NCBI GenBank assembly: GCA_016841325.1
Contig: JAENZJ010000005.1
Span: 1-64,000, forward strand
Direction of reading: 5' to 3'
From: Thermincola carboxydiphila
Lineage (GTDB): Bacteria > Bacillota > Thermincolia > Thermincolales > UBA2595
Length of the DNA: 64,000 nt
The notes under the pieces were generated by a model that searched no databases, had not been told where the DNA came from, and saw only the letters and a list, made by a program, of their open reading frames with translations. Below, piece after piece: positions 350-30,769 of the stretch. Position 1 is the first letter of the stretch, and every line of letters starts with the position of its first letter. A program made the translations under genes and the position numbers.

Positions 350-3300
350 GTGCTGATGATTAGAAAAGGAAGAACTGACGGATATCGAAGAATTTTAAGT
401 ATCATTTTAAGTATACTGATTGTGTTTCCGACTTATTTGTTTCCAATAACTAATGTTGGCCCAAGTAGTCCTGCCAAGGCAGAAGATGATACCGTTGCCC
501 CGACAGTGAGCATAACCTCCCCGGCTAATAATACAATTGTGGGTACGGCCGGAGATACAGTGACAATCACGGCCAATGCCAGTGATGCAGTAGGGATAGC
601 GAAGGTAGAGTTTTATGTAGACAATACGCTGGTAGGCGAGAGTGTGTATGCCCCTTACAGCTGCAGTTGGGTAGCGACAGGAGGAAGCCATACTGTTTTC
701 GCAAAAGCATATGATGCGGCAGGAAATGTAGGGACAAGCAGCAGCATAACGATAAAGGCGAGTGCTGAAGTAACGGTAACCAGCCCGGGTGATGGGAGTA
801 CGGTAAGTGGGATGGTAACCAACTTCACCGGTACATTCAGCACACCACTGAACCCTGGCTATTATACCATGCTGTATATAGATGGTAACCAAGTAGCCCA
901 ATATGTTACCAGTGGTCCGAGTGTAAGTATTAATTACAACTGGGATACAACACAGTATGCAAACGGCAGTACTCATGAAATAAAGATATCAGGCTACACA
1001 GCAACGGGGAACGTTTACTCATATGGCACAAGCACAGTAACAGTGAACAACGAAACAGATACCGTTGCCCCGACAGTGAGCATAACCTCCCCGGCTAATA
1101 ATACAATTGTGGGTACGGCCGGAGATACAGTGACAATCACGGCCAATGCCAGTGATGCAGTAGGGATAGCGAAGGTAGAGTTTTATGTAGACAATACGCT
1201 GGTAGGCGAGAGTGTGTATGCCCCTTACAGCTGCAGTTGGGTAGCGACAGGAGGAAGCCATACTGTTTTCGCAAAAGCATATGATGCGGCAGGAAATGTA
1301 GGGACAAGCAGCAGCATAACGATAAAGGCGAGTGCTGAAGTAACGGTAACCAGCCCGGGTGATGGGAGTACGGTAAGTGGGATGGTAACCAACTTCACCG
1401 GTACATTCAGCACACCACTGAACCCTGGCTATTATACCATGCTGTATATAGATGGTAACCAAGTAGCCCAATATGTTACCAGTGGTCCGAGTGTAAGTAT
1501 TAATTACAACTGGGATACAACACAGTATGCAAACGGCAGTACTCATGAAATAAAGATATCAGGCTACACAGCAACGGGGAACGTTTACTCATATGGCACA
1601 AGCACAGTAACAGTGAATAATTCGCCGTCTGATATCATTCCACCCACGGTTATCGCCTCTCCTGCCGGCGGGACATTTACTACTCCAATAGATATCACAC
1701 TATCAGCAGATGAACCCGCAGCAATTTACTATACCGTTGATGGCAGTGAGCCCACTGTATCGAGCTTTGTTTACAGTGAACCAATTAGCATTTCCGCTAA
1801 TACCAATCTAAAGTTCTTCGGAGAAGACCTGTCAGGAAATTTATCAGAAATCGTGGAAGAAAACTACATTATTGATACTGATGCACCTGCAGTAACAATA
1901 ACATCTCCTATAAACGGTGCATCTGTTAGAGGTATGCAAAACATCCAAGTTACTGCCTCAGACCCGAATGGAATATTAAGAACAGATCTATATATTGACG
2001 ATATTTTAGTTGGCTCAGATACCGTTTCAAATTATGTGTATCAGTGGAATACTGATTTTGATGATGAAGGACAGCATGTTATCAGTGCAAAAGTATATGA
2101 TACTGTTAATAATGTTGCTATCACCAGTGTGACAGTAAATGTTGACCGGGCTGTTCCGGTAATTTCCAACGTCAAAGTAATACGTAACGCAACAAATGCT
2201 GTTGTAACCTGGGATACCAGTGAGCCGTGTGATTCAATGGTGGATTATGGAACAACAAGCTCCCTGGGATTATCCAGTCCGATTGATTCAAATTTAAGTA
2301 CACATCACAGAGTAGTTGTATTGCTGGAACCTAGCAGCGGGACAACAGGACAGACATTTTATTTCAGAGCAGTTTCAAAGGACGGAGCAGGGAATGTAGT
2401 AAATTCTGCAACAACAAGCAAGTTGATCAAAATGTATATAGGCACCTGGCTCATGAATGGTAATTACCGTCCTGTTGACACAAGCACAGCGCTTCAGACT
2501 GACTTTATCGGCGGGGAAGCTGTTGCTGAACCATATGAGGGCAAGTTGGATTCGGGAAAAGTATGGGCCAAGGTTGAAACAGATACTGACCGAAATATAT
2601 ATATCCCGACGTTCATGGGGCCTAATATTGGATATTCCACATATGATTATACAAATGTATATGCATTTACCTATGTGTATTCTCCTGTCAGCCAAAGTGC
2701 AGATCTTAAACTTACCATTGATGATCAAGCCAAAATTTGGTTAAATGAAAACCTCGTTTTCACGGCTGATGGAAGTGCCGGCAGCTTTACAGCCAGTAAT
2801 GTCCAGCTGAATCAGGGGTGGAACAAACTTTTAATTAAGGTTAAAAACAACTTCGGGGGGTGTGGATTTGATGCAGCTTTTGCCCAGCCCGGTACATCTA
2901 TCCCTGTTTATGGGCTGTTATACCAGTTAGAACCGAACTTTGCAGAAGAACCTGATATTACTCCGCCAGCCATATATCCGACGATTGGAATAGACAGTGC
3001 CGGAAATGGACAGGTCTCATGGCAGACCACAGAACTGAGTCCGGCTTATATGGAGCATGGTCCGACAACCAGTTACGGAACCGTTATTTCCACTACCAAT
3101 AAAACAGTTAATCACTTAGCTGCCATCAATAACCTGGGCTCTGCAGAAAACTATTGTTTTAATTTCACATCAACAGACAGATTAGGCACCAGTTCTTCCA
3201 AAGAAGTGGTTTATCCTCTGATTCATGATGCCGGCATAACCTTAACGTCTGCAACGGCAACTGTTAGCTGGGCTACCTATGCTCCTGCTGACAGCCAGAT

Positions 3301-6300
3301 TGAATGGGGGACTACAACAAGCTTTGGACAGCAGAATATCCTTGATAGCTCAATGGTGTCCAGGCACTCAATGGTTATTACCGGCCTTAGCCCCAATACC
3401 ACCTATTATTTCCGAATAAAATCCAGGATTGATGATGGTACCCTGTATACTTTTGAACTCAAAGGAACAACTCAAAGCACTTATATCCGTAATTGGCTTG
3501 TAAATGGCTTATACTCTACACCTGATGCTAATGACCTTCTGACAATGGATTTCTTAAACAGTGAACAAAATGTTATTCCTTATGAACGCAAACCTGAGGG
3601 TGACTATATATGGGCGAAGGTTATTTCGACATACGATACAATCAATGTTAGAAACCTTTTTCCGGCTCCACTTGTAGGAGAGTACCAGTACAAAACAATG
3701 TATGCACATACATACGTATACTCCCCAGAACCCCAGAGCCCTTATTTAAGTATGGGTTCTGATGATGGGATAAGAGCCTGGGTCAACGGCGAATTAGTCT
3801 GGTCAAATGACGTTGTCAGAACCTGTACTAATGACCAGGATAAAGTTCAGGTACTACTTAATCCGGGTTGGAATAAGCTTTTGATAAAAGTAAAGAACAT
3901 GACAAGCAGCTACGGGTTCTCTGTGAGGTTTACGGATGCTGAAGGCAATCCACTGGATTTTAAATACCAGTTGGATGACCCCGCTCAGTTTAGTATAACT
4001 CCGGATACCGTTCCACCAAATATATATAATGTTAAGACATCGATTACCGAATATAACAAGGTGCGAGTGGAATGGTGCACAGATGAAGCCGCTACCAGTT
4101 ATCTTGAATGGGGTAAAGATACAAATTATGGGTCAAGTCTCTCTTCTGCCATTTTGAGCATTAAACACTGGTATGACATAGGTCCGTTAGAAGCAAATAC
4201 CACATATCACTTAAGGCTTGCAGGCTCAGACTATGCCGTAAATAACTTTGTTTATGATGACTTTACCGTTTTGACCGGCCAGGGGACTGCGCCTTTTATC
4301 AAAAGCTGGCTGATAAACGGCACCTATACCAATACTGACAGTGATACCAGGCTGACAGTTGATTATCTGGGCGGTGAGTCAATCGCCAAACCCCTCGACG
4401 GGGAAGGCACTCTGGCCATGGGCAAGAACTGGAAGGAAATAACTTCTGAGGGCGACTACATTGATCTTTCAGGTGAGTACGGTACTTCACCGGATTCAGT
4501 TGCTTATGCCCATATTTATGTCGAATCTATTACTGCAAAATCAGACCATTATCTGTGGCTGGGAACCACAGGCGGAGCCAACGTTTTTGTCAACGGAACG
4601 AGTGTATTTACCCATGTGTACAGCAGGGAACACCAGTTTAACGAAGACATTATCCCACTTCAACTGAAGGATGGCCTTAATACAATATTGATTAAGCTAA
4701 CCCCCGGAGAAAACGGCCAATTCGGGTTTTCAGCAAGGGTTGCAATGATAAATGGGAATCCACTGGGCATCAGTACCTTTGCAAATTACCAGTCACAGGG
4801 CGACCCTGAACCGTTCTTTACGGGGTATGGAGAATTAGTTCAGGCATATACTGGCCTGCAGTATGGAAAGAACAATGTTTCTATCAGGACCTCGTACAAT
4901 CTCGGGCAATCATGGTTTCAATCGGTCCAGCTTGCCAGCGACGCTTCTGGTCCAAGCTGGGCTCAAATAGGTAATAAAAAAGGATTATTCTATAAAAAAC
5001 TGGTTGACGGGAAATGGCAGGTAGCCTATAAGGTTACAGAGAATGACGTCAATTCCTGGACTGATGAAATTATCTTATCTAATTCGGCAGTGAGCATATA
5101 TAATGTGGATGCCACAGAGGACCCGGCTGCAAAGAAGGTATATGTGTTCTACAGTGATGACACAGGAATTTTAAGGTACAGGGTTTCATCCGACCTTGTC
5201 ACATGGACGGCTGAACAAACTGTGCCTGTCACCCTGGCCCCCAATTCTTATCCTAACAGGTATCCCTCCTTTGGCATTGAAAAGCTTAGGAACGGGAACT
5301 GGGGACTGGCCTATATAGCAGCTGACGACAGTACTTATCACTACTCAAAAGCATTGTTTACCACGTCAAAGAACCTGATTGACTGGCAAGAACCCTCAAT
5401 TTTAATGGCCAGCACTCTTTGGGAGAGACCCAGCCAGGTCCATTACTATGAGGATGACAACGGCAACCTGTTTGCCGGCATCCAGAGATGGAAGCACTTG
5501 TCAACATTCAATATGTATTCAAGCAAGAGTGTCGACGGAGGGGCAAGCTGGAGCAATCCCGTTATTGTAGACTCTGATGAATCTTCCTGGTCAAGTGAAC
5601 ATTATGATCCTATTGGTAATGTTAAACTTTACTACGGGAAAAATGGCAAGATTAAGGAAGCTTACTTGCTTAAGATTTATGACGGCCCTGTCGTTGAGGA
5701 TAATGTTTTTGGATTTGGCCACAACTCCGGGGAGGAAGGCTTTGGAGTAAACCCGGCCATAGGTAATTACTCATATCAAAATGAAGATGTGAAAATCCCT
5801 GGTATAGGTGTGCCTCTTGACTTCACCAGAAGCTATAATTCCTCAGGAGCCAAGGCCGACGGAGTTTTGGGCTATGGCTGGACCCACAACTATAATCTGG
5901 AACTGTCAGTAAACCTCAATGGAATAATAAATGTAAGTACCGAAGACGGGCGCATGGATTCTTTCCTTCTGGGTCCTGATAACAACTACATTCCATTCCC
6001 CGGAGTATATGATACACTGATTAAAAATGCTGACGGGACCTGGAGCCTGAAGCGTACCAACAAGACAACCCTGGATTTTGACAATGAAGGCAAAATTACT
6101 AAGATCACTGATAAGAACGGCAATACCCTGGCCTTTACATATGATTCAAATAAACGGCTGATTAAAGTAACAGAAGCTGCCGGGAGGACCCTCACCTTTG
6201 ATCATGATTCAAATGGTCACATAGTTAAAGTAACCGATCCGCTTAACCGGGAGTATATATACGGGTATAACAGCGGTAACCTAACCACATATACAGACCC

Positions 6301-9300
6301 GGGAGGTGGAACAACAACATATATATATGATACAGAACACCGCATTATAGAGGTGAAAGATCCGCGAAACAACCGGGCCATTAAGGTGAATTATGACGCC
6401 AATGGCAAGGTTGCCAGCCAGGAGGATGCCAAGGGGAACGTGACTTCCTTTGGGTATGATTTAACGACCAGGAAGACCACTATCACTGAAGGGGGTAAAA
6501 CCAAGACCCAGGAATTCGACGGGTATTTCCGGCTGGTTAAAGAAACTGACCCGCTTGGGTATATCACTACATATACCTATGATGGGTTAGGAAACAGGAA
6601 AACCATAACCAACGCCAATGGCAATGTGACCTCTTATGACTATGACTTAAACGGCAATTTAACCCGGACTACTGACCCATTGGGCAACACTAGTGAAAAC
6701 TATTATAACGATGACAGTGACCTGATTTACAGAAAAGACCCCAATGGTAACATCACAAGATTTGATTATGACAGCAAAGGCAACCTGCTGACTACCCATA
6801 TGCCCAGTGGTAAAGATATATCCTATACCTATTATGCAAACGGCCTGCCGCAAACTGTGACTGATGCCAATAACGGGACCACGACCTTCATATATGATCA
6901 GTACGGCTATATAGAAAAGCAGACAGACCCCCTGGGTAACAGCATCAGCTACACCTATGACGCGGTCGGGCGAAGGCTGAGTGTCACTGATGCGGTATAC
7001 AATACTACTTCCTTTACTTATGATAACCTGGATAACCTCCTGACAGCCACTGACCCATTGAACAGGACAACGGTTTATGAATATGATGCCAATGGGAATA
7101 AGATTAAGGAAACTAATCCCCTTGGGAAAATTACCACATATACGTATGACGAGCTTAACCAGCTTACCCAGGTTATCGATGCGGCAGGCAGCATCACTGC
7201 CATGGAGTATAATGCAGACGGCAACCTGGTCAAAGTGACAGACGCTTTGGGTGGTATCACCACCAATACCTATGATGACGGCGGGCGCTTGACTTACACC
7301 ACGGATGCCAATGGTCACAGTACTGCTTATTCATATGACGGGAATGACAACCTGCTGACCATGATTGATGCCCTGGGCAAATCTACCACCTTCACTTATG
7401 ATACCAATGACCGCCTGTCTTCGGTTACTGACCCTCTGGGCAGGACAACGACATACGAATATGATGCCGGTGGGAACAAAACTAAAGAGATTGACCCCCT
7501 TGGTTTTTCAACCCTCTTTACTTATGATTCGATGAACAATCTTGTAACTGTTCGGGACGCTGCTTACAGGGTAACCACATATTATTATGACGGTAACAGT
7601 AATAATACCAGAATAGTTGATGCCGAGGGGAATGTAACAGAGAATGAGTATGATAAAAATAACCGTCTGGTCAAAGAGATCAGGCATAACATTCCTGCAG
7701 ACCAGATAACAGAATACAGGTATGACCCCAATGACCGGGTTATTCAAACAATTTATCCGGGCGGGGTTACAACTTCAAATTCTTATGACAGTGCCGGCAA
7801 CCTGATATCCTTCACTGACGGCAGGGGATATACCACCGTTTACGAATATAACGCCCTGAATAAAGTAGTAAGTGTCACAGATGCGGTATATAACACCCGG
7901 ACCATAAACTATGACGACCTGGGCAGGGTCAGCAGTGAAACTGACTGGCTCGGCAATGTTACTTCATATGAGTATGACAAACTGGGCCGGAAGGTTAAGG
8001 AGAATTATCCTGACCTCAGCAGCCGGACATTTACCTTTGACCCGGTCGGAAACCTGCTTACCGAAACTGACGGGGAAGGCCATATCACTTTATACACATA
8101 TGACGAACTGGACCGTCCGGTCACAGTAACCGATGCGGTCTATGGCATTACCAGGTATACCTATGATGATGCCGGTAACATGATTTCCGAAACAAATGCC
8201 CTGAATAACATTACAACATACCGTTATGACGGCCTTGACCGGCTGATCGAAACTGTCCTGCCGGGAGGAACAACAACAACCTACAGTTATGACCCTGCAG
8301 GAAACCTTAAAACAGCCACAGACCCCAATGGACATACGACAGTTTACGATTATGACAATATTGACAGGCTGATTAAAATTACAGATGCCCTTGGTAATAC
8401 AACCCAATACGAATATGACGCACTGGGCAACCGGACGAGACTAATTGATGCCAGGGGCAAGGCCACACGGTTCAGCTATAACGAGCGGAACCTGATGGTG
8501 TCGGTAACTGACCCCCTGAACCATACAATGTCCTATGAATATGACGCCAATGGCAATATGGTTAAAATGACAGATGCCAGGGGCAGCAGCACCCTGTATG
8601 AATTTGACCCGTTAAACCGCATGATTACTGTCACCGACCCCCTGAACAGAGCCAGGAATTTAGCCTATGATGCCAATGGCAACCAGACCAGTGTCACAGA
8701 TGCCAAAGGACAGGTAACCGGGTATGATTATGATGCCATGAACCGGGTGACCACCATCACCAGACCGGATAATCAAACCATCAGTTACACATATGACAAG
8801 AACGGCGCCAGGACGATGATGTCTGACCCCACAGGTGACGTCAACTATACCTATGATGACCTGAACAGGCCGGTAAAAGCCAGCTACTCACGAAACGGGC
8901 TGGACATGAACTATGCTTATGATGCCATAGGCAACAGGACTCTGCTCACCGTAACCAGGGGAGAGACAGTAATCTACAGTGTTTATTACAGCTATGATGA
9001 ACAGAACCGGCTCACCGAACTGACTGACAAAGACGGAAACACATTCACCTTCGGTTATGACAGCGCCGGAAATGTCACCGAAGTAAACTATCCTAACGGC
9101 ACAAAAGCCACATTTACTTATGACGATGTCAACCAGGTAACCGCCATCAATAACCTGAAAACTGCCGGAGGGAACATCAGGAACTACACATACACATATA
9201 ATCCTAACGGCTACCGGACCCAGATGACGGTTGACGGAGCAGAAGTCATTGATTATGACTATGACGACCTGGGCCAGCTCACCGGGCTAACAGACAAGAG

Positions 9301-11026
9301 GGGACATTATGACTTCATCTATGACCAGGTTGGCAACAGGCTGCAAATGGTGTATACCGATGTTAACTCCAGCGTCTATTCCATGGGCTATACCTATGAT
9401 ATCGCCAACCAGCTCCTTACAGCCGGACCCAATGCATACACCTATGATGCCAATGGCAACAGGCTGACCAAGACTACCGTTAACGGTACCGTATACTATG
9501 AATATGATTACCTGGATATGCTCACCGGCATCACATCACCGGACGGTACCGTAACCTATACCTATGACGGTGATACCAGGAAAGTAAGCCGGGAAAGCGA
9601 CACCTCCGGGGTCACTTACTTCCTCTTTGACGGCGATACAGCCATACTTGAAGGGGTAAGCCCTGACCTGGCAAATCCGACATCGTATGTAGAAGGACTT
9701 AACGGCCTGCTGTCGAAAGTATCACCAGAAGGCATCATAGCCTATTACTACTATGACGCCCAGGGCAACCTGGGAGCTATGGCGGATGAACTGGGCAATA
9801 TCACTGACACATACGGTTATGACGCCTGGGGAGCACTATCAGAACATACCGGCAACAGTGATGAGAAATATACATATGTGGGCAAATACGGAGTAGCCAT
9901 CGAACCTGATGACGGTCTGCTGATGATGGGCCGAAGATTCTATGACCCGGAACTGGGCATCTTCCTGCAAAAGGATGTCTTCCCCGGATATATCCAGGAC
10001 CCCACAACCCTGCACCCATATATGTACACACGTAACGACCCGGTTAACAAGATTGACCCGGATGGACAGCTGTGGATCTGGGACAAGACCAAGCAAGTCG
10101 TCAAAGGAGCCGCTGAAAAAGGGAAACGGGCTGTCAGAAAGGTAGTCAATAAAGGGACAGAAGTTGTCAAAGCGGCAGTAGAGACAGTCAAAGGTGCGGG
10201 TCAGGCCGTAGTGAAGACCGGGAAGAGCATAGTCCATAAAGGGGCTGAGATAGCAAGTTCCACGAAAAGAAAGGTCAAAAAGGGGATTGCTACCGGAAAG
10301 GCAAAAGTACAGAAAAAGAAAGAACAGGTTGTTCAAAGAGGCAAAGAGGTCCTGACACGAGGTAAGGAACGGGCAATAGCTGCCGGACAGGCTGCCAAAA
10401 GGGTTGCCATTAATGCACCTGCAGCGATATGGGAATGGAGACAGAGTAACTTTGAAAAGGCTGAGCAATATAACATTAAGCATGCAAAGAAAATGTTACA
10501 ATTATCGGGTATTAACGAAGATGACCCTGATTATGAACAGAGCTTAGAATCCCATATTAAACTGCAAGAAGCAGCTTTCAATAGTGCGACTTATGGTGGA
10601 GGATTGAAAGTAGTTGGAAATGTTGCAAGTAAAGCCCCAGGTGTCATAAGCAAGGTTTTGCAAAAAGTAAGGTCTAAGGGAAATGGTGGTGCTAAAATAC
10701 TTCAAAACAAGGCTCAAGGCGAAGCATTTGAGCAAGTTGTTAAACAAGAAATTTTGCAAACTCAGGATAATGTTGTTCAACAAATTACAGTTAAAACACA
10801 AAGCGGAGTAAGAACACGCCTAGACCTTATTGGCACTACCAAACAAACAGGGAATGTTGTTATAACAGAAGCGAAATCATCTGCAACAGCCCCGTTAACT
10901 CCCAATCAAAGACTTGCATTCCCTGAAATTGCTAAAACAGGTGCCACGGTTGTTGGTAAAGGTAAAACCCCATTCACAGGAGGCACACAAATTTCTCCAA
11001 CCGAAGTAGATATAATACGTCCTTAG
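350..11026 (+). CDS. Giant secreted Rhs/YD-repeat polymorphic toxin: signal peptide, two identical Ig-like/OmpL47-type modules, FN3 + PA14-like modules, BNR/sialidase-like region, DUF6531-like region, many YD repeats, Rhs core end (DPxG), Lys/Ala-rich linker, PD-(D/E)XK-like toxin tip
   Basis: 3558-aa ORF with RBS aggggagaag; N-terminal hydrophobic segment ending AKA; dozens of Y(T/E)YDxxGN motifs; RRFYDPELGIFLQKD and NDPVNKIDPDGQ core end; C-terminal RLDLIG...ITEAKS resembles D-x(n)-ExK. Confidence 0.93.
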   Translation: MLMIRKGRTDGYRRILSIILSILIVFPTYLFPITNVGPSSPAKAEDDTVAPTVSITSPANNTIVGTAGDTVTITANASDAVGIAKVEFYVDNTLVGESVYAPYSCSWVATGGSHTVFAKAYDAAGNVGTSSSITIKASAEVTVTSPGDGSTVSGMVTNFTGTFSTPLNPGYYTMLYIDGNQVAQYVTSGPSVSINYNWDTTQYANGSTHEIKISGYTATGNVYSYGTSTVTVNNETDTVAPTVSITSPANNTIVGTAGDTVTITANASDAVGIAKVEFYVDNTLVGESVYAPYSCSWVATGGSHTVFAKAYDAAGNVGTSSSITIKASAEVTVTSPGDGSTVSGMVTNFTGTFSTPLNPGYYTMLYIDGNQVAQYVTSGPSVSINYNWDTTQYANGSTHEIKISGYTATGNVYSYGTSTVTVNNSPSDIIPPTVIASPAGGTFTTPIDITLSADEPAAIYYTVDGSEPTVSSFVYSEPISISANTNLKFFGEDLSGNLSEIVEENYIIDTDAPAVTITSPINGASVRGMQNIQVTASDPNGILRTDLYIDDILVGSDTVSNYVYQWNTDFDDEGQHVISAKVYDTVNNVAITSVTVNVDRAVPVISNVKVIRNATNAVVTWDTSEPCDSMVDYGTTSSLGLSSPIDSNLSTHHRVVVLLEPSSGTTGQTFYFRAVSKDGAGNVVNSATTSKLIKMYIGTWLMNGNYRPVDTSTALQTDFIGGEAVAEPYEGKLDSGKVWAKVETDTDRNIYIPTFMGPNIGYSTYDYTNVYAFTYVYSPVSQSADLKLTIDDQAKIWLNENLVFTADGSAGSFTASNVQLNQGWNKLLIKVKNNFGGCGFDAAFAQPGTSIPVYGLLYQLEPNFAEEPDITPPAIYPTIGIDSAGNGQVSWQTTELSPAYMEHGPTTSYGTVISTTNKTVNHLAAINNLGSAENYCFNFTSTDRLGTSSSKEVVYPLIHDAGITLTSATATVSWATYAPADSQIEWGTTTSFGQQNILDSSMVSRHSMVITGLSPNTTYYFRIKSRIDDGTLYTFELKGTTQSTYIRNWLVNGLYSTPDANDLLTMDFLNSEQNVIPYERKPEGDYIWAKVISTYDTINVRNLFPAPLVGEYQYKTMYAHTYVYSPEPQSPYLSMGSDDGIRAWVNGELVWSNDVVRTCTNDQDKVQVLLNPGWNKLLIKVKNMTSSYGFSVRFTDAEGNPLDFKYQLDDPAQFSITPDTVPPNIYNVKTSITEYNKVRVEWCTDEAATSYLEWGKDTNYGSSLSSAILSIKHWYDIGPLEANTTYHLRLAGSDYAVNNFVYDDFTVLTGQGTAPFIKSWLINGTYTNTDSDTRLTVDYLGGESIAKPLDGEGTLAMGKNWKEITSEGDYIDLSGEYGTSPDSVAYAHIYVESITAKSDHYLWLGTTGGANVFVNGTSVFTHVYSREHQFNEDIIPLQLKDGLNTILIKLTPGENGQFGFSARVAMINGNPLGISTFANYQSQGDPEPFFTGYGELVQAYTGLQYGKNNVSIRTSYNLGQSWFQSVQLASDASGPSWAQIGNKKGLFYKKLVDGKWQVAYKVTENDVNSWTDEIILSNSAVSIYNVDATEDPAAKKVYVFYSDDTGILRYRVSSDLVTWTAEQTVPVTLAPNSYPNRYPSFGIEKLRNGNWGLAYIAADDSTYHYSKALFTTSKNLIDWQEPSILMASTLWERPSQVHYYEDDNGNLFAGIQRWKHLSTFNMYSSKSVDGGASWSNPVIVDSDESSWSSEHYDPIGNVKLYYGKNGKIKEAYLLKIYDGPVVEDNVFGFGHNSGEEGFGVNPAIGNYSYQNEDVKIPGIGVPLDFTRSYNSSGAKADGVLGYGWTHNYNLELSVNLNGIINVSTEDGRMDSFLLGPDNNYIPFPGVYDTLIKNADGTWSLKRTNKTTLDFDNEGKITKITDKNGNTLAFTYDSNKRLIKVTEAAGRTLTFDHDSNGHIVKVTDPLNREYIYGYNSGNLTTYTDPGGGTTTYIYDTEHRIIEVKDPRNNRAIKVNYDANGKVASQEDAKGNVTSFGYDLTTRKTTITEGGKTKTQEFDGYFRLVKETDPLGYITTYTYDGLGNRKTITNANGNVTSYDYDLNGNLTRTTDPLGNTSENYYNDDSDLIYRKDPNGNITRFDYDSKGNLLTTHMPSGKDISYTYYANGLPQTVTDANNGTTTFIYDQYGYIEKQTDPLGNSISYTYDAVGRRLSVTDAVYNTTSFTYDNLDNLLTATDPLNRTTVYEYDANGNKIKETNPLGKITTYTYDELNQLTQVIDAAGSITAMEYNADGNLVKVTDALGGITTNTYDDGGRLTYTTDANGHSTAYSYDGNDNLLTMIDALGKSTTFTYDTNDRLSSVTDPLGRTTTYEYDAGGNKTKEIDPLGFSTLFTYDSMNNLVTVRDAAYRVTTYYYDGNSNNTRIVDAEGNVTENEYDKNNRLVKEIRHNIPADQITEYRYDPNDRVIQTIYPGGVTTSNSYDSAGNLISFTDGRGYTTVYEYNALNKVVSVTDAVYNTRTINYDDLGRVSSETDWLGNVTSYEYDKLGRKVKENYPDLSSRTFTFDPVGNLLTETDGEGHITLYTYDELDRPVTVTDAVYGITRYTYDDAGNMISETNALNNITTYRYDGLDRLIETVLPGGTTTTYSYDPAGNLKTATDPNGHTTVYDYDNIDRLIKITDALGNTTQYEYDALGNRTRLIDARGKATRFSYNERNLMVSVTDPLNHTMSYEYDANGNMVKMTDARGSSTLYEFDPLNRMITVTDPLNRARNLAYDANGNQTSVTDAKGQVTGYDYDAMNRVTTITRPDNQTISYTYDKNGARTMMSDPTGDVNYTYDDLNRPVKASYSRNGLDMNYAYDAIGNRTLLTVTRGETVIYSVYYSYDEQNRLTELTDKDGNTFTFGYDSAGNVTEVNYPNGTKATFTYDDVNQVTAINNLKTAGGNIRNYTYTYNPNGYRTQMTVDGAEVIDYDYDDLGQLTGLTDKRGHYDFIYDQVGNRLQMVYTDVNSSVYSMGYTYDIANQLLTAGPNAYTYDANGNRLTKTTVNGTVYYEYDYLDMLTGITSPDGTVTYTYDGDTRKVSRESDTSGVTYFLFDGDTAILEGVSPDLANPTSYVEGLNGLLSKVSPEGIIAYYYYDAQGNLGAMADELGNITDTYGYDAWGALSEHTGNSDEKYTYVGKYGVAIEPDDGLLMMGRRFYDPELGIFLQKDVFPGYIQDPTTLHPYMYTRNDPVNKIDPDGQLWIWDKTKQVVKGAAEKGKRAVRKVVNKGTEVVKAAVETVKGAGQAVVKTGKSIVHKGAEIASSTKRKVKKGIATGKAKVQKKKEQVVQRGKEVLTRGKERAIAAGQAAKRVAINAPAAIWEWRQSNFEKAEQYNIKHAKKMLQLSGINEDDPDYEQSLESHIKLQEAAFNSATYGGGLKVVGNVASKAPGVISKVLQKVRSKGNGGAKILQNKAQGEAFEQVVKQEILQTQDNVVQQITVKTQSGVRTRLDLIGTTKQTGNVVITEAKSSATAPLTPNQRLAFPEIAKTGATVVGKGKTPFTGGTQISPTEVDIIRP
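488..1617 (+). repeat. Two tandem copies of a 560-bp sequence (488-1047 and 1058-1617, offset 570 bp), apparently identical at nucleotide level
   Basis: Direct comparison; duplicated antisense ORFs in the ORF track are also identical. Confidence 0.92.
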
Positions 11027-11050: not shown

Positions 11051-11374
11051 ATGTCGTTAGAGCAAATAAACGAAATAGATACAATAGGTATTGATAATGC
11101 AACAGGAGTTGTTGTCCTATCGATTATTGATGGATTAGATTGGCAAGATGAACAAAACCATTTGGAAGTACTTCAGGAAAAGATTAATAACTATTTAAGT
11201 TTTATAGAAAGCGGAGATATTTATAACGCATATCCAGATGCAAAGGAGCGAGCTATAGAAATAAAAATATTTGCAAAATATGATTTTACTGAGAAAGCTT
11301 TTCAATTTTTAATTAATGCGGAGAAAATAATTGCTAATGCAGGGTTTAAACTAAGGTGGATAGTAAGAGGATAA
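11051..11374 (+). CDS. Putative immunity protein for the Rhs toxin tip (DUF6572-like)
   Basis: 107-aa ORF directly downstream of the toxin stop; MSLEQINEIDTIGI...VVVLSIIDGLDW...EHLEVLQEKINNYLSFIESGDIY...YPDAKERAIEIK resembles the DUF6572 family from memory. Confidence 0.75.
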   Translation: MSLEQINEIDTIGIDNATGVVVLSIIDGLDWQDEQNHLEVLQEKINNYLSFIESGDIYNAYPDAKERAIEIKIFAKYDFTEKAFQFLINAEKIIANAGFKLRWIVRG

Positions 11375-11622: not shown

Positions 11623-11835
11623 GCAGGTATGGTCGTTTGTGGAGGTTTTCGTCTTGTTCGAATCGTTGCCCAACTTGCTGACTCCGTTGGGGAAGTGCCG
11701 GGCGGAGCCAGGACGGCGGAGCGGCCCGCCGCCACGGATGGCGGCTGGGCCGTGAAATCCGGCACTTTCACATAAGGGTGAAGTTAGTTGGGCAGATGAG
11801 AACAACGAAAAACCGGAATAAATGACCATGCCTGC
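11623..11835. mobile_element. 213-bp MITE-like imperfect palindrome (element A), same family as 30551-30764
   Basis: Imperfect inverted termini GCAGGTATGGTC...GCCCAACT / AGTTGGGC...GACCATGCCTGC; inner gccatccgtggc hairpin; similar in sequence and size to the element at 30551. Confidence 0.6.
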
Positions 11836-11903
11836 GGCGGAATTATGATAAATCAAACATTGAAGGACGGATTATCTAAAATTATCCAGCATCTATGCAA
11901 TAT

Positions 11904-11968: not shown

Positions 11969-13738
11969 ATGACAAACTATGACCATCTGGGCCAGCTCAC
12001 CGGGCTGACGGACAAGAGGGGACATTATGACTTCATCTATGACCAGGTTGGCAACAGGCTGCAAATGGTGTATACCGATGTTAACTCCAGCGTCTATTCC
12101 ATGGGCTATACCTATGATATCGCCAACCAGCTCCTTACAGCCGGACCCAATGCATACACCTATGATGCCAATGGCAACAGGCTGACCAAGACTACCGTTA
12201 ACGGTACCGTATACTATGAATATGATTACCTGGATATGCTCACCGGCATCACATCACCGGACGGTACCGTAACCTATACCTATGACGGTGATACCAGGAA
12301 AGTAAGCCGGGAAAGCGACACCTCCGGGGTCACTTACTTCCTCTTTGACGGCGATACAGCCATACTTGAAGGGGTAAGCCCTGACCTGGCAAATCCGACA
12401 TCGTATGTAGAAGGACTTAACGGCCTGCTGTCGAAAGTATCACCAGAAGGCATCATAGCCTATTACTACTATGACGCCCAGGGCAACCTGGGAGCTATGG
12501 CGGATGAACTGGGCAATATCACTGACACATACGGTTATGACGCCTGGGGAGCACTATCAGAACATACCGGCAACAGTGATGAGAAATATACATATGTGGG
12601 CAAATACGGAGTAGCCATCGAACCTGATGACGGTCTGCTGATGATGGGCCGAAGATTCTATGACCCGGAACTGGGCATCTTCCTGCAAAAGGATGTCTTC
12701 CCCGGATATATCCAGGACCCCACAACCCTGCACCCATATATGTACACACGTAACGACCCGGTTAACAAGATTGACCCGGATGGACAGCTGTGGATCTGGG
12801 ACAAGACCAAGCAAGTCGTCAAAGGAGCCGCTGAAAAAGGGAAACGGGCTGTCAGAAAGGTAGTCAATAAAGGGACAGAAGTTGTCAAAGCGGCAGTAGA
12901 GACAGTCAAAGGTGCGGGTCAGGCCGTAGTGAAGACCGGGAAGAGCATAGTCCATAAAGGGGCTGAGATAGCAAGTTCCACGAAAAGAAAGGTCAAAAAG
13001 GGGATTGCTACCGGAAAGGCAAAAGTACAGAAAAAGAAAGAACAGGTTGTTCAAAGAGGCAAAGAGGTCCTGACACGAGGTAAGGAACGGGCAATAGCTG
13101 CCGGACAGGCTGCCAAAAGGGTTGCCATTAATGCACCTGCAGCGATATGGGAATGGAGACAGAGTAACTTTGAAAAGGCTGAGCAATACAACATTAAGAT
13201 GGCAAAAGATGGGTTGAAATGGCGAGGAATAGACGAAAGTGACCCGGATTATGAACAGAAACTAGAATTAGAAATTCACATGGTAGAAACATCTTTTGAT
13301 GTCGCAACTGCGAGTGGAGGATTGAAAGTAGTTGGAAATGTTGCCAGTAAAGCCCCAGGTGTCATTAACAAGGTTTTGCAAAAAGTAAGGTCTAAGGGCG
13401 CGGGTAAGGCTGTTGGACCATATCAGGTAAGGACGTTTGATGAACTATCTAAACTGTCAAAACCTAATGACGGATTAGAAATTCACCATGTCGTGCAGAA
13501 ACATCCTGCTGGACAGGTTATTGGTGGATATGAACAAAGTATGGCACCATCAATCGCACTTCCTAGAATAGAGCACAGAGCTATACCTAATTTAAGAGGT
13601 TATTATTCAGGCAATGCTAGAGATTTACTTTCACGCGATATACGAAATTTGAGAAACTATACAGATGCACCAAATAGTTCGTTAAGAGAACTGATAAATC
13701 TAAATAAAGAAATGTATCCAGATGCATTTAGAAAATAG
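11969..13738 (+). CDS. Displaced (orphan) Rhs core-end/C-terminal cassette with HNH-like toxin tip
   Basis: 589-aa ORF; 11989-13198 is near-identical to 9271-10480 (offset 2718); tip GLEIHHVVQKHPAGQVIGGYEQSMAPSIALPRIEHRAIP resembles HNH/EndoVII-type toxin motifs; no signal peptide or obvious RBS. Confidence 0.85.
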   Translation: MTNYDHLGQLTGLTDKRGHYDFIYDQVGNRLQMVYTDVNSSVYSMGYTYDIANQLLTAGPNAYTYDANGNRLTKTTVNGTVYYEYDYLDMLTGITSPDGTVTYTYDGDTRKVSRESDTSGVTYFLFDGDTAILEGVSPDLANPTSYVEGLNGLLSKVSPEGIIAYYYYDAQGNLGAMADELGNITDTYGYDAWGALSEHTGNSDEKYTYVGKYGVAIEPDDGLLMMGRRFYDPELGIFLQKDVFPGYIQDPTTLHPYMYTRNDPVNKIDPDGQLWIWDKTKQVVKGAAEKGKRAVRKVVNKGTEVVKAAVETVKGAGQAVVKTGKSIVHKGAEIASSTKRKVKKGIATGKAKVQKKKEQVVQRGKEVLTRGKERAIAAGQAAKRVAINAPAAIWEWRQSNFEKAEQYNIKMAKDGLKWRGIDESDPDYEQKLELEIHMVETSFDVATASGGLKVVGNVASKAPGVINKVLQKVRSKGAGKAVGPYQVRTFDELSKLSKPNDGLEIHHVVQKHPAGQVIGGYEQSMAPSIALPRIEHRAIPNLRGYYSGNARDLLSRDIRNLRNYTDAPNSSLRELINLNKEMYPDAFRK

Positions 13739-13756: not shown

Positions 13757-14125
13757 ATGAATAGCGACGATTTTGTTGAAAGGATAAAGTTATATGTCAG
13801 AGATGCTGCTGTTGAGGATTCAATTAGCAAGTTGGGGAAACCACCTGGGAGAAAACCTAGACAACGACATCTAAATCAATCAGAGTGGTATAACAAACTA
13901 TCAGAGGAGAACAAAATAATGCTTAAGAGCATTATTGAGGAGGCTGTTGATGAATCATTATTTGGATTTCTGGCTGTTTTAGATGGTGTAAGGGTAATTG
14001 AAGATGGTCAAAACAGAGGAACGCTAGAATTAAATTACCAAAATCAAAATGAAAAAATCCTTCTTAATAACCCAGATAAAGAGTATTTACATGATATATA
14101 CAACTCTTTAACTAATAAAGAATAA
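13757..14125 (+). CDS. Putative cognate immunity protein of the orphan Rhs tip
   Basis: 122-aa ORF immediately downstream of the toxin tip with RBS gaagagggtgag. Confidence 0.6.
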   Translation: MNSDDFVERIKLYVRDAAVEDSISKLGKPPGRKPRQRHLNQSEWYNKLSEENKIMLKSIIEEAVDESLFGFLAVLDGVRVIEDGQNRGTLELNYQNQNEKILLNNPDKEYLHDIYNSLTNKE

Positions 14126-14175: not shown

Positions 14176-14220
14176 CATAGAGGGGTCATCAATGACCACT
14201 ATATGCTCCTTGACAAATGC
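14176..14220 (+). other. Hairpin plus conserved tail CTCCTTGACAAATGC, copy 1
   Basis: GGTCATcaATGACC stem flanked by ATAG/CTAT, then tail identical to that at 19726-19740. Confidence 0.6.
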
Positions 14221-14778
14221 AGAGTACATCTTTGCAGACACCTTGAGAAGCTTGAAATTTGGCTGTTCGGTAGCAATTACAGACACCTCAAAGGTGTACC
14301 TTGCTCAATTTACAGCCACCTAAGGAAAAACAGATATTTTCGTTCAAAGTCCCTGCGCGGTCGGCATTGCCGACTGCTGTGGATCGGCGGGTGCGCCTTA
14401 AGGTGCATCCGCCTTTAACCTGCATGGTTTTCGACCCTATGGTTCACCCCATGTTTCAGTAGTATTCTTGGGGGCTGAATTTCGGAATTTGGAAGTCTCG
14501 CAAAACGCCTCCAAATCCATTTTAAATTTTGCTATAGGTATGTTTACCCTACCTTGGCTACCAAAATCGAACACAGGGGCACACGGTGGCCCACGTTGCC
14601 AGATAACAATATTAGCAAACTTGCCATTGGTATTAGACATTTGTGTGCCGGATAACGAGGGCATATATGAAACACACAGCTTCTGTAGACTGCCGGTAAC
14701 GAACTGTAAATGTCAATTAAAAATTAGGCCATTTCCCGGTCTAATTTTAGGCCACCAAAGTCATAAAAAAATGAATTC

Positions 14779-15531
14779 CTAACTGCTATTTTTCGAAATA
14801 CTCTGCCTGAACCGGTAACTCTCACCGTTCATGTTGAGGATATGAGCCCGGTGGGTTAGACGGTCAAGTAAGGCTGCTGTCATCTGTTCATCCCCGAATA
14901 CTTCGGTCCATTTGGCAAATTCCAGATTAGTCGTGATGATAACACTTCCTCGCTCATATCGGGATGAACAAAATTGAAAAAGAAGTTCGGCCCCAGACTT
15001 ATTGAAGGGGACAAATCCTAATTCATCAATAATAACCAAATCTGGTGTGAGCCATTGTTTCTCCATTTTGTTAAGCCGGTATTCATGCTGTGCTGCCACC
15101 AGTTCATTCACTAAACCGGCAGCGGTATAGAATTTAACTCTAAACCCCTGGCGGCATGCGGCAAAAGCAAGAGATATGGTTAAATGAGTTTTACCGACAC
15201 CGGCATTACCGACCATGATGACATTTTCCTTGTGTTTAATAAATTCCCCGTTGGCCAGGGCTAACACCTTAGGTTTGTTTAGACTGGGAATTGCCATAAA
15301 ATCAAAGTTATCCAGAGTCTTTATCATAGGAAAAGTTGCTTGTTTAATCCGGCGTTGAATCCGGTTGTTATCCCGCTGGTGCACTTCCTGCTCCAGGACA
15401 CCAAGCAAGAATTCCTCATAAGTCAGGTTGTTATCAGAAGCCTCACGAGCCATTGATTGATAAACCTTCGCCGCCTGAGGCATCTTTAACTGCTTGAAGT
15501 AAGCATCGATGAGCATGGTTTTACCGGTCAT
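14779..15531 (-). CDS. istB: IS21 helper ATPase IstB
   Basis: Walker A GNAGVGKTHL, LVIIDELGF; IstB/DnaC-like architecture. Confidence 0.95.
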   Translation of the reverse strand: MTGKTMLIDAYFKQLKMPQAAKVYQSMAREASDNNLTYEEFLLGVLEQEVHQRDNNRIQRRIKQATFPMIKTLDNFDFMAIPSLNKPKVLALANGEFIKHKENVIMVGNAGVGKTHLTISLAFAACRQGFRVKFYTAAGLVNELVAAQHEYRLNKMEKQWLTPDLVIIDELGFVPFNKSGAELLFQFCSSRYERGSVIITTNLEFAKWTEVFGDEQMTAALLDRLTHRAHILNMNGESYRFRQSISKNSS

Positions 15532-17064
15532 GATAGACCACCCCCTTCCTGCAGCAGGACATTATACCTGTTAAGGTCCGGACGGTCTACAGTAACAGAT
15601 GGAAGTCCGGCTAATTTATCTGCTCTCAGGGGTGAGGGCCTGTGAGTAGGGGTATTAAACTGTAACAGGAAGTTGTACACTCCGTCATAACTAAACACCT
15701 TATGGGCCATAGCCATTTCCACTGCATTTTTAACCAATTCAGCGGGATAGTTACGATGAAGCAGAAGTATTCTAACAAAATCCTTGTTTGCTTTAGGAGT
15801 ACGCTGGGCCAGTCCTTTCCTGTATTGTCCGTAAACTGCCGGAAGTGACGATGGGTTAAACACTCGTGTGTTATCATCAAGGGCTCTTGGCTTATGCAGG
15901 AGCAGTTCCAGATAGTGATCCAAACAAAGATGGTCCTGCTTACGCCCGTATAACCTTGGATGAGTGGCAATGACTTCGCTGCCCAAAACAATGTCTATGG
16001 TATCAATTGATGCTCTCACGGTAACTGGTTTACCAACAAATTTAACTGGCACCGAATAGCGGTTCGTTTCAAACTGTACCATGGAATATGTATTTACCTT
16101 GGCTTCTACATGTCTATGACAAGGAAAAGGCAATCGGGGTAATGACCTTAGTTCTTTACGTTCTGCTTCCCATAAAGCCAACTTATTTCTGTGTGTCAAA
16201 CACCACTGATGGAGCCTTTGGTTCAGTTCTTCAAAGGACCTGGCTTCCGGTATTGGAACAAAGAAATTCTGGCGTACATACCGTACTAAACCTTCAACGC
16301 CACCTTTTTCGTTGCCTTTGGCCAGATTGCAGAAATCAGGTTCAAAGAGGTAATGAGTTCTAAATGCAATAAAGTTATCCTGTTCAACCCGGTCTTTGCC
16401 TACAAGAACTTTTTTAACTGCTGTGGTTAGGTTATCATAGGCTATCCGGTGTGGAACTCCACCAAAGTATTCGAATGCCTGTCTATGACCGTCAAAGAAG
16501 GCTTCCTGCTTTTCAAAAGGATATGCCCTGGCGTAGAAGGCCCCGGATGATGATAACCGTTGCAGAAAAAAGGTGTGCTTTTGTTTCAACTCCGTTTAAA
16601 AGAAATATTGCTTCACCCCAGTCAGTTTGGGCTTGATTGCCTAAACCGAATTGCAGAGGCAGAAATGCTTCTCTGTTTTTGGCCCTGACTTTACGCAGAT
16701 AATCTGCAACAGTATTGTAGCCACCAGGGAAACCATATTCGTCAACGAGCCTGCGGAAAATCCGCATTCCAGTATGACGCTGCTTTCTGGGTTTGTTTTC
16801 ATCAGAGGCTAAAATCTCCTGAATGACCGGGATATATGGGCCAAGAACCGGATGAGGTTTCTCAACCGTAAGATTATATATTGGGGGTTCAACCAACTCC
16901 ATATCTAAATATTTGGTGATGGTGTCACGGTGGTGACCGGTCAATCTACTAATTTCTCTGATAGATAGACCTTCCCTAAAGTGCATTTTTCTGATATTCT
17001 CTATTTGAGCCATCTTAACCATCTCCATTCCTCCTGTACATAGTTGTCTGGACAACACTATCAT
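15528..17064 (-). pseudogene. istA: IS21 transposase IstA, split by a frameshift near 16555-16565
   Basis: 16513-17064 encodes the N-terminal HTH and start of the catalytic core (HLFSAT...); 15528-16589 continues in another frame (FYARAYPFEKQEAFFDGHRQAFEYFGGVPHRIAYDN). Confidence 0.85.
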
Positions 17065-17399
17065 ACAGGAAAATTTGGTTAAGGTGGCCTAATTTTTGCC
17101 CGGTATTTGGTACAATTTTAGATTAGCATTTACAACGAACATATAAATTGGCTTGTACCCCATGGTCCATGGTGAACCATGGATTTACAGAAAATCTGTT
17201 CTGTGGTAAAATTTGCGCCAGAGGGGGGTTTAAGGGGGTAAGAAATTATCCCGGAAAAATCCCTCGTTTTCTTTTTCTGCATGTCATACTTTTACTTCTC
17301 CATAAAAAATATACCGCAAAAATGACTTGCAACCCATTTCAAACAGAGTTAACATCACACAACAATAGTGAAAATAACCTGTTTGAAACGGAAAGTTAG

Positions 17400-17470
17400 C
17401 GGTAGATAGGCTGTCGCGCCCTTGCGGGTCTGAAAAGACTAACGCTATCATCTGAGGTTGCCGGTGCTGG
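17400..17470 (+). ncRNA. Candidate IS110 bridge-RNA region (5' non-coding end)
   Basis: Non-coding leader upstream of an IS110 transposase containing GTCT-GAAA-AGAC hairpin; location as expected for IS110-group elements, structure not computed. Confidence 0.35.
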
Positions 17471-17474
17471 GAGC

Positions 17475-18740
17475 TTGAAGTGGATGCAGGACAAAAGAAG
17501 GGATGATATGCAGAGAAGAGAAAATTACCTCTATGTGGGTATGGACTTGCATAAGGACACACATACCGCCGTAATGGTAAACTGCTGGAATGAAAAACTG
17601 GATGTTATTGTTATCGAAAATAAGCCCAGCGAGTTTAATAAGCTGGCAAAACGAGTAAACAGGATGGCTGTAAAGCTGGGTCTATCCCCTATTTACGGCT
17701 TGGAAAATGCCTATGGCTACGGCAGAAGCCTTGCCGTTTGGCTGATTGAAAAAGGGTACATAGTAAAGGATGTTAACCCGTCACTAGCTTACGACCAGCG
17801 CAAAAGCGCACCCATGATGAAGAAAAACGACGAGCATGACGCTTATTGCGTGGCAACGGTGTTAATCAACCAACTTCATACCCTGCCCGACGCAAAGCCG
17901 GAGGACAACCATTGGACGCTGTCACAGCTTGTCAACCGCCGGGATACTCTTGTAAAAGACGGTATCCGGCTGAAAAACGGTTTGCATGAGCAGGTGTCGG
18001 CGGCTTACCCAAGCTACCATAGATTTTTTTGTGATATTGACCGGAAGACGGCGCTGTATTTTTGGAAACACTATCCGTCACCCATCTATCTGCGGAATAA
18101 ACCCGTTGATGAACTGTTTGAAGAATTCAAAGCGATCGCGTCCAATACAACGAAAAGTAAGATTGAATTGATATTTGAATGTGTCCATAATGATGGTAAT
18201 ACGATACGGGAATATCAGGAATCAAGGGATTTTATCACCCAAAGCCTTGCGCGTTGTCTTGAGCAGCAAAAGGAAGAAATAGCCCTGATCGATTGTGAAA
18301 TCGAAAGGATGCTAAGGTATTTTGACTATAAACTAACAACAATACCGGGCGTCAGCATTGCCACGGCAAGCAAGCTGATTGCCGAAATTGTTGACATACG
18401 CCGTTTTCCAAGTGCTGATAAACTGGCTCGTTATGCAGGAATTTCATCAATCAAGTTTAGTTCCGGCGGCAAAGGCAAGGAGCAGAGCTCAAAACAAGGT
18501 AACCGTGAGCTGCACGGATTATTTTATTTTCTGGCGGTATCCATGGTCACGGTTCCAAAGACAGGAAAGCCGAATCAGCCTATATTTTACTCCTATTATC
18601 AGCGTAAAATCAGCGAAGGAAAAACGAAATCACAGGCGTTGGTCTGTATTATGCGCCGATTAGTAAACATTGTTTACGGCATGATGAAGAACAAGACGGA
18701 GTATCGTCCCTTTGAGGATCATGTTGTAGTAGAACAGTAA
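17475..18740 (+). CDS. IS110-family transposase (DEDD N-terminus, transposase_20 C-terminus)
   Basis: VGMDLHKDTHTAVM... and TTIPGVSIATASKLIAEI...LARYAGISSIKFSSGGKGKEQSSKQGNRELHG. Confidence 0.93.
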   Translation: MKWMQDKRRDDMQRRENYLYVGMDLHKDTHTAVMVNCWNEKLDVIVIENKPSEFNKLAKRVNRMAVKLGLSPIYGLENAYGYGRSLAVWLIEKGYIVKDVNPSLAYDQRKSAPMMKKNDEHDAYCVATVLINQLHTLPDAKPEDNHWTLSQLVNRRDTLVKDGIRLKNGLHEQVSAAYPSYHRFFCDIDRKTALYFWKHYPSPIYLRNKPVDELFEEFKAIASNTTKSKIELIFECVHNDGNTIREYQESRDFITQSLARCLEQQKEEIALIDCEIERMLRYFDYKLTTIPGVSIATASKLIAEIVDIRRFPSADKLARYAGISSIKFSSGGKGKEQSSKQGNRELHGLFYFLAVSMVTVPKTGKPNQPIFYSYYQRKISEGKTKSQALVCIMRRLVNIVYGMMKNKTEYRPFEDHVVVEQ

Positions 18741-18866
18741 TAATTGTTATAGCACAGTATTGAAATCATGCCATAATTTCTAAAATTGAATACGGGTTCC
18801 CAACCTTAATCTGAGATATAGATTCTTCCACCTGAGGGCGCGGGAAAGACAGGAATCATTGAATAG

Positions 18867-19103
18867 CACCATCTGTTACCACAGCAGTTTAAGAAACAAT
18901 TTGAAAAAGCTGGACTGGATATAGAAAAATATAAGATACCTTTGGATAAAGCTGATCATAGACTTAAACCCGACGGTTTGCATACAGGTACAAATAATTG
19001 GAATAAGCAATGGACGAATTTCTTCGAACAAAATCCAAATGCAACCAAGCCTGAGCTTCTTAACCAATTAGATAAAATGATGAAAAATTCTGGCTTAAAA
19101 TAG
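18867..19103 (+). pseudogene. Truncated Rhs/polymorphic toxin tip, SitA6/DUF2380-like HH nuclease fragment
   Basis: Frame translates HHLLPQQFKKQFEKAGLDIEKYKIPLDKADHRLKPDGLHTGTNNWNKQWTNFFEQNPNATKPELLNQLDKMMKNSGLK*, preceded directly by an in-frame TAG. Confidence 0.8.
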
Positions 19104-19114
19104 GAGGGCATACT

Positions 19115-19702
19115 ATGTTCTATGTATTAAGAAGGGATGATAGATATCCTGACGTTTGGTATAGTGACAGTGATGATTTCGATCCATTTATTTCGGTTAA
19201 GTGTCCCAAATGCCCTGAACATCAAAGAGGAGAAAGAGATATAAATGTTAACCTTTGGATTGATATAAAGAAACCTAAAATGGGCGATTGTGTTTCCACA
19301 GTATATAGCGATTGGCTAATAACCGACCGTGTTGCTGAAATTTTTAAGGCACACAATCTAACAGGTTACAAATTGCATCCTGTTAAGGTATGCAATAAGA
19401 AGCTTGACTTTAACCTTTGGGAGCTTGTTATAACGGGTAGTGCCGGAAGAGCGCATACTGATTCTGGTTTAGACCTTAAACTTTATTGCGAGTACTGTGG
19501 CTTAACAAGGTACACACCAATTAAGAAAGGGTTGGGTATTATTGTTGACGAAGCACGTTGGGATGGAAGTGATTTCTTCACAATTATTGAATACTATAAG
19601 TATATTTTGATTACAGAAAAAGTAAAAAAAATAATCGAAGAAAATAATCTAAAGGGTGTTAGGGTGGTCTTGCCCTCTGAGCTTGGAAGCGATGAGACAT
19701 AG
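19115..19702 (+). CDS. Double-CXXCG motif immunity protein, SitI6-like
   Basis: 195 aa with CPKC and CEYC motifs, RBS aggaggg, directly after the toxin fragment. Confidence 0.8.
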   Translation: MFYVLRRDDRYPDVWYSDSDDFDPFISVKCPKCPEHQRGERDINVNLWIDIKKPKMGDCVSTVYSDWLITDRVAEIFKAHNLTGYKLHPVKVCNKKLDFNLWELVITGSAGRAHTDSGLDLKLYCEYCGLTRYTPIKKGLGIIVDEARWDGSDFFTIIEYYKYILITEKVKKIIEENNLKGVRVVLPSELGSDET

Positions 19703-19740
19703 GGGTAAGCAATAACCCCGCTATGCTCCTTGACAAATGC
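19698..19740 (+). other. Hairpin plus conserved tail CTCCTTGACAAATGC, copy 2
   Basis: catAGGGGTaagcaatAACCCCgctatg then tail identical to 14206-14220. Confidence 0.6.
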
Positions 19741-19844
19741 GGATTTCCTCATAGCATAACCCCTATTACGACCCCCAAAAATGTAGTCCACTCATAATGA
19801 GAAAATCGTGTGGCAACATAACCCGGATCAACTATAAAGGCATT

Positions 19845-30764: not shown

Positions 30765-30769
30765 TCTCA

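What the first reader, a model, noticed from the sequence alone, without database searches (positions are those of the whole stretch)
350..19742. Polymorphic toxin island with three different toxin/immunity modules in one Rhs locus
A full-length secreted Rhs protein with a REase-like tip and DUF6572-like immunity gene is followed by an orphan Rhs-CT with an HNH-like tip and its immunity gene. A truncated SitA6/DUF2380-like tip with a double-CXXCG immunity gene comes next. All are on the same strand and in the toxin-then-immunity order. This fits the serial displacement model of Rhs/CDI tips, but in a Gram-positive sporulating lineage where delivery is poorly understood.
Basis: partly seen in the sequence, partly recalled or inferred. 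Interest (0 to 1): 0.7.

Follow-up and report, generated by a model that had tools for sequence, protein, structure and literature searches.

The report
Secreted toxin gene with spare tips
A spore-forming bacterium carries one giant secreted antibacterial toxin gene with its antidote gene, followed by one spare toxin tip and one broken tip, each with an antidote; this is a well-known arrangement, but here the spare tip shares 1,178 identical bases with the active gene, as if it had recently been recombined with it.

Summary
The main gene (350-11026) is a WapA-like Sec-exported YD/Rhs protein with a PD-(D/E)XK-type tip. Its immunity gene is DUF6572 (4e-38). The same tip/immunity pair occurs in Cronobacter CdiA, a Chitinophagaceae Rhs and a Kofleriaceae remnant. 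An unexpressed-looking orphan fragment (no RBS) carries an HNH-like tip; its pair recurs on Aeromonas plasmids and in another Bacillota family. The third tip is the DUF2380/SitA6 type. It lies behind an IS110 element, has no start codon and carries an in-frame stop; its pair recurs in one other genome.

The orphan matches the main gene without a mismatch over 1,178 bp, with divergence on both sides, in the same frame. That mosaic points to recent recombination, so the orphan best reads as a silent tip donor. This is the published Rhs orphan-module model (Jackson 2009; Koskiniemi 2014) in a Bacillota genome: a new member of a known kind. Two extras stand out. DUF6572 acts in Streptococcus suis as a type VII adaptor, but this genome has no EssC above cut-off, so here it is probably the cognate immunity protein. 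A cotJC fragment repeats at both island edges.

The parts
350..11026 (+). Main Rhs/WapA-like secreted YD-repeat toxin, 3558 aa (likely true start ATG 356); Sec-type N-terminus, Big_7/Fn3-like/BNR-like N-half, DUF6531, YD shell, Rhs core, Lys-rich linker, tip
   Evidence: basic N-terminus, hydrophobic stretch and AKA motif read by eye; GGGGAG upstream
488..1620 (+). Two tandem copies (563 bp, 99.8%) of a Big_7-containing unit inside the main gene
9258..10680 (+). Core/linker segment shared with the orphan: 9293-10470 is 100% identical (1,178 bp); 4 mismatches in 9258-9292; 49 mismatches in 10471-10680
10679..11023 (+). Tip 1, PD-(D/E)XK-type predicted nuclease (115 aa)
   Evidence: VRR_NUC E 0.011; invariant D49, E64, K66
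11051..11374 (+). Imm1, DUF6572, predicted cognate immunity of tip 1
11624..11867 (+). Divergent copy of a dispersed element related to the TwoAYGGAY RNA motif, in the spacer between Imm1 and the orphan
11969..13738 (+). Orphan Rhs fragment (589 aa) without Shine-Dalgarno; in frame with the main gene
13397..13735 (+). Tip 2, predicted HNH/EndoVII (SHH-like) nuclease (113 aa)
13757..14125 (+). Imm2, predicted cognate immunity of tip 2
14181..14236 (+). Hairpin-bearing 3' flank of module 2; 79% copy at 19701-19756
14703..17134 (-). IS21-family element, istA frame split in two (15528-16589, 16513-17064), istB 14779-15531
17475..18740 (+). IS110-family transposase
18837..19103 (+). Tip 3 remnant, DUF2380/SitA6-type HNH domain; no start codon, in-frame TAG at 18864-18866; begins with the GAGK junction also seen at tip 2
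19115..19702 (+). Imm3, Gmx_para_CXXCG/SitI6-like immunity gene with strong AGGAGG RBS
19701..19756 (+). 3' flank of module 3, homologous to 14181-14236

Best explanation
A WapA-like polymorphic-toxin locus. The main protein is exported by the Sec pathway (inferred from its N-terminus), its YD shell encloses and presents the C-terminal tip, and the tip is a nuclease delivered to neighbouring bacteria; the small gene behind it protects the producer and its kin (all inferred from family knowledge). The orphan module is probably not translated as it stands. It keeps an old tip/immunity pair that homologous recombination through the shared core can put back under the main gene's expression and export signals, at the cost of tip 1 and Imm1. 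Module 3 is an older displaced module whose toxin has been broken by IS traffic and a stop codon, while its immunity gene stays intact and probably still gives protection. Shown: the genes, the conserved tip/immunity linkage, the identity block and frame, the missing RBS. Inferred: toxicity, neutralisation, export, exchange in living cells.
For: Architecture and domains. Pairing of tip 1 with Imm1: Cronobacter CdiA CT 42% followed by DUF6572, Chitinophagaceae Rhs CT 57% followed by an Imm1 homologue at 54%, Kofleriaceae tip remnant followed by a DUF6572-type gene. Pairing of tip 2 with Imm2: Aeromonas plasmid 58%/50% and G280 64%/54%. Pairing of tip 3 with Imm3: G097 37%/35%. Recombination: 1,178 bp with no mismatch between 4 mismatches in 35 bp upstream and 49 in about 200 bp downstream; if the 4 core mismatches were spread evenly over 1,213 bp, all falling in the first 35 bp would have a probability of about 7e-7 (my arithmetic). 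Orphan silent: no Shine-Dalgarno match, whereas the main gene, Imm2 and Imm3 have one and Imm1 a weak one. Closest precedent: Salmonella LT2 main/orphan share 522 bp at 95% and fuse under selection (PMC3967940). Related loci carry orphan copies too.
Against: No toxicity, neutralisation or export data. Tip folds rest on motifs and weak HMM hits; AlphaFold models were poor (pLDDT 47 and 53) and Foldseek gave nothing. No strain of the same species with swapped tips was found, so exchange is inferred from one genome. The Streptococcus suis DUF6572 domain is reported not to neutralise toxin (PMC12558993).
Confidence: 0.82

Rival explanations
1. The orphan module is a recent plain duplication or a circle integration, not a site of repeated exchange; the identity is just youth, and the locus is simply decaying under IS elements.
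For: IS21 with a split istA and IS110 sit in the locus; module 3 is broken. Jackson 2009 (PMC2935791) proposes single integrations of circular intermediates.
Against: A single young duplication should be uniformly identical; the mosaic of 11% mismatch, then 1,178 identical bp, then strong divergence needs a second event. A G003 orphan starts at nearly the same core position, so this orphan boundary is probably not new.
Confidence: 0.25
2. The orphan and immunity genes work inside the cell as toxin-antitoxin modules rather than as spare tips.
For: Such a role has been reported for Salmonella RHS elements (PMC7043789, abstract listed). Imm2 and Imm3 have good RBSs.
Against: Orphan 2 lacks a Shine-Dalgarno site and module 3's toxin cannot be made as full length.
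Confidence: 0.1
3. DUF6572 (Imm1) is an export adaptor for type VII secretion, not an immunity protein.
For: In S. suis the DUF6572 domain binds EssC and is dispensable for neutralisation (PMC12558993).
Against: The genome has no EssC match above cut-off, only a 113-bit match of the kind FtsK-like ATPases give, while one control genome did pass the cut-off. The main protein has a Sec-type N-terminus. DUF6572 follows the same tip in Cronobacter, Chitinophagaceae and Kofleriaceae, groups not known to me for EssC systems.
Confidence: 0.1

Closest known systems
Rhs main/orphan locus of Salmonella Typhimurium LT2 (Koskiniemi 2014, PMC3967940)
   Same: Full-length gene plus downstream fragment with its own tip and immunity gene; shared homology block; orphan lacks translation and export signals
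   Different: Here the shared block is 1,178 bp at 100% (LT2: 522 bp at 95%), the main protein is a 3,558-aa Sec-type protein rather than a T6SS-type effector, and there is a third, broken module
WapA of Bacillus subtilis and Streptococcus suis (PMC12704120)
   Same: Large Sec-exported YD-repeat protein of a Bacillota species with polymorphic CT and downstream immunity gene
   Different: No LysM or sortase wall anchor was identified here; different N-terminal domains; different tips
CdiA-CT/DUF6572 pair on Cronobacter malonaticus plasmid p1 (NC_023024)
   Same: Same tip family (42%) directly followed by DUF6572
   Different: Carried by a hemagglutinin-repeat CdiA-type protein, not by a YD shell
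SitA6/SitI6 of Myxococcus (TIGR02269/TIGR02264)
   Same: Tip 3 and Imm3 are related to these families
   Different: Not a lipoprotein, apparently once joined to an Rhs linker, scores below the equivalog cut-offs, toxin broken

Membership tests
Rhs/WapA polymorphic toxin | Long YD-repeat shell with Rhs-associated core followed by a variable C-terminal tip | tested here: met
   PF05593 35 stretches E 4.6e-202; TIGR03696 4.5e-15 in the orphan; tips differ between main and orphan after a shared core
Rhs/WapA polymorphic toxin | Immunity gene directly downstream of the tip | tested here: met
   Adjacent pairs recur in unrelated genomes
Rhs/WapA polymorphic toxin | Sec-type signal (Gram-positive version) | tested here: inconclusive
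   Basic N-terminus, hydrophobic stretch and AKA motif read by eye; no signal-peptide predictor available
Rhs/WapA polymorphic toxin | Tip is toxic and immunity neutralises it | not testable with these tools
   needs expression assays
Rhs orphan module (as described in PMC3967940) | Fragment with partial core homologous to the main gene, own tip and immunity, no initiation signals | tested here: met
PD-(D/E)XK nuclease (tip 1) | D...E-x-K active-site pattern in a REase fold | tested here: inconclusive
   Pattern invariant in 3 sequences, VRR_NUC E 0.011 below cut-off; fold not obtained
DUF6572 (PF20212) | HMM score above 27 bits | tested here: met
   130.3 bits
HNH/EndoVII Tox-SHH (tip 2) | HMM score above cut-off, [SG]HH motif | tested here: not met
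   14.5 bits against a cut-off of 22.7; motif reads IHH
DUF2380 (tip 3) | HMM score above 26.3 bits | tested here: met
   47.2 bits
SitA6 lipoprotein (TIGR02269) | Full-length score above 85.75 and lipoprotein signal | tested here: not met
   38.7 bits, C-terminal part only, no N-terminus
Gmx_para_CXXCG / SitI6 (Imm3) | HMM score above cut-off | tested here: not met
   No hit for the window protein; its G097 homologue (34.5% identical) passes PF09535 at 27.3 bits, so it is related but not a scored member

The most novel reading that the evidence does not exclude
Tip exchange at this Gram-positive locus is active now, through gene conversion and tandem duplication of the whole island: the 1,178-bp perfect block is a conversion tract, and the 74-bp cotJC fragment fused to the Rhs upstream region at the contig edge is the junction of a second copy of the 20-kb island, the intermediate proposed for Salmonella.
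Probability: 0.2. Interest if true: 0.5.

Novelty: new member of a known kind. Interest (0 to 1): 0.36.

Why it matters
Orphan Rhs tips have been worked out mostly in enterobacteria. A Bacillota locus with an 1,178-bp perfectly matched, in-frame donor is a clean place to test whether tip switching also happens in Gram-positives. The tip 1/DUF6572 pair, found next to each other in four phyla and here in a genome without a type VII EssC above cut-off, makes a testable counterpoint to the recent report that DUF6572 is a secretion adaptor.

Tried and rejected
A fixed 5' module boundary (site-specific mobilisation) was considered because the G003 orphan starts at nearly the same core position; G009, G001 and G002 orphans start elsewhere, so it was dropped. 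The 56-nt hairpin repeat after Imm2 and Imm3 as a recombination site: only two copies in the genome, none at Imm1, no exact copy in relatives; kept as a shared flank only. Structure prediction gave low-confidence models and a Foldseek search of tip 1 gave no meaningful hits. PDB sequence searches gave nothing. PADLOC gave nothing useful. Viral-contig scans for tips 1 and 2 and a genome-contig scan for the orphan found no relatives. Naming the organism was not possible.

Full report
What is there. The window starts at base 1 of a 161-kb contig. From the left edge lie: a main Rhs gene (350-11026, 3558 aa), Imm1 (11051-11374), a 600-bp spacer, an orphan Rhs fragment (11969-13738), Imm2 (13757-14125), an IS21 element with a split istA, an IS110 transposase (17475-18740), a toxin-tip remnant (18837-19103), Imm3 (19115-19702) and then the spore-coat genes cotJC/B/A on the other strand (cot names from my reading of the sequences). 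Pfam gives 35 RHS-repeat stretches, Big_7, Fn3-like, BNR-like and DUF6531 domains in the main protein. The genome has a second Rhs locus on contig C1.

The tips. Tip 1 (10679-11023) has D49, E64 and K66 invariant with homologues from Bacteroidota and Cronobacter, a PD-(D/E)XK-like pattern; VRR_NUC scores E 0.011, below cut-off. Tip 2 (13397-13735) has a weak Tox-SHH match (E 0.063) and a His-His pair kept in the Aeromonas homologue. Tip 3 scores DUF2380 2.2e-12 and TIGR02269 7.4e-10. AlphaFold models with one or two sequences were not usable, so the folds are motif-based inference.

The immunity genes. Imm1 is DUF6572, 4.1e-38. The tip 1/Imm1 pair is adjacent on Cronobacter malonaticus plasmid p1 (CdiA-CT 42%, then an annotated DUF6572 gene), in a Chitinophagaceae MAG (57% and 54%) and, as a tip remnant, in a Kofleriaceae MAG. 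Elsewhere DUF6572 genes sit near other CDI or Rhs genes or alone. The tip 2/Imm2 pair recurs on Aeromonas plasmids (58%/50%) and in G280, where the tip has lost its first half. The tip 3/Imm3 pair recurs in G097 (37%/35%), whose immunity protein passes the Gmx_para_CXXCG model. Conserved adjacency across phyla is the main evidence that each small gene belongs to its tip. None of the immunity genes has a match in the two congeners examined, and tip 1 has none either, so the pairs look laterally acquired.

DUF6572. A 2025 Streptococcus suis study found that the DUF6572 domain at the end of immunity proteins binds the EssC ATPase and plays no part in neutralisation (PMC12558993). In this genome the EssC model gives only a 113-bit match against a cut-off of 778, while one of the control genomes passes. 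A type VII role for Imm1 is therefore unlikely here, and the tight link to tip 1 favours immunity. This is inference until tested.

The orphan as a donor. Main 9258-10680 and orphan 11976-13398 align without gaps. There are 4 mismatches in the first 35 bp, none in the next 1,178 bp (9293-10470), and 49 in the rest, which is the variable pre-toxin stretch and a short, nearly conserved segment before the tip. The two copies are in the same reading frame relative to their start codons (from the coordinates). The orphan has no Shine-Dalgarno match; the main gene, Imm2 and Imm3 do, and Imm1 has a weak one. The core of the related genome G003 differs by about 9% from this main gene. A perfect block between diverged edges is best explained by recent recombination or gene conversion. 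This matches the published model: displaced tips (Jackson 2009, PMC2935791) that can fuse to the main gene (Koskiniemi 2014, PMC3967940; 522 bp at 95% there).

Module 3. The tip frame begins with the same GAGK junction as tip 2, then has a TAG at 18864-18866, and no full-length frame links it to an upstream start. A 56-nt hairpin-bearing stretch follows Imm2 and, at 79% identity, Imm3; its 18-nt centre occurs nowhere else in the genome. This supports a common origin of the flanks of modules 2 and 3. Decay grows with distance from the main gene, as serial displacement predicts.

Comparison across relatives. A main gene with about 81% identity exists in another genus of the family (G003, contig broken in the repeat), and one with about 57% in another family of the order (G009) with a different tip and its own orphan. 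A congener (G001) has several Rhs loci with direct repeats of 0.1-2.9 kb at about 82-97%, and G002 has tandem orphan fragments on a short contig. Orphan modules are thus ordinary in this lineage.

Verdict. A sound, ordinary finding of a known kind, with a clean identity block and a useful DUF6572 pairing. Export, delivery, toxicity and neutralisation are untested.

Noticed in passing
window 1-74 and 20365-20438: A 74-nt piece of cotJC (98.6% identical, same orientation) lies at the contig's first bases, joined to the Rhs upstream region, and again inside the intact cotJC right of the island; the contig probably breaks in a longer repeat. Could be a tandem island duplication or an insertion scar.
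   Followed up: partly
window 11624-11867 and 30510-30772 (-); G000 C36:229269-229539, C11:54171-54441: Dispersed element with three copies about 99% alike and one divergent copy beside the orphan. The C36 and C11 copies match the Rfam TwoAYGGAY motif weakly (E about 0.01-0.02); many shorter relatives in the family include two above the gathering score (L098, L099). One copy lies just upstream of an aminotransferase gene. A stem GTCCAAC/GTTGGAC reads GCCCAAC/GTTGGGC in the divergent copy.
   Followed up: partly
window 488-1620: 563-bp tandem duplication (99.8%) of a Big_7-containing unit near the N-terminus of the main Rhs protein.
   Followed up: no
L021 (G000 contig C1) 1-3951: Second Rhs locus in the same genome, in fragments, with tips weakly resembling PG_binding_1 and zinc-dependent phospholipase C.
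   Followed up: partly
window 19845-19883: Near-perfect 20-bp stem hairpin (z -9.5) between Imm3 and cotJC, possibly a bidirectional terminator.
   Followed up: no
L054 (G003 C22) 1-105: Sequence resembling the 3' end (domain V) of a group II intron just upstream of an eroded Rhs orphan; recognised from memory, not tested.
   Followed up: no
G000 C44:19065-19413: Internally deleted derivative of the window's IS21 element (three pieces at 93-96%).
   Followed up: no
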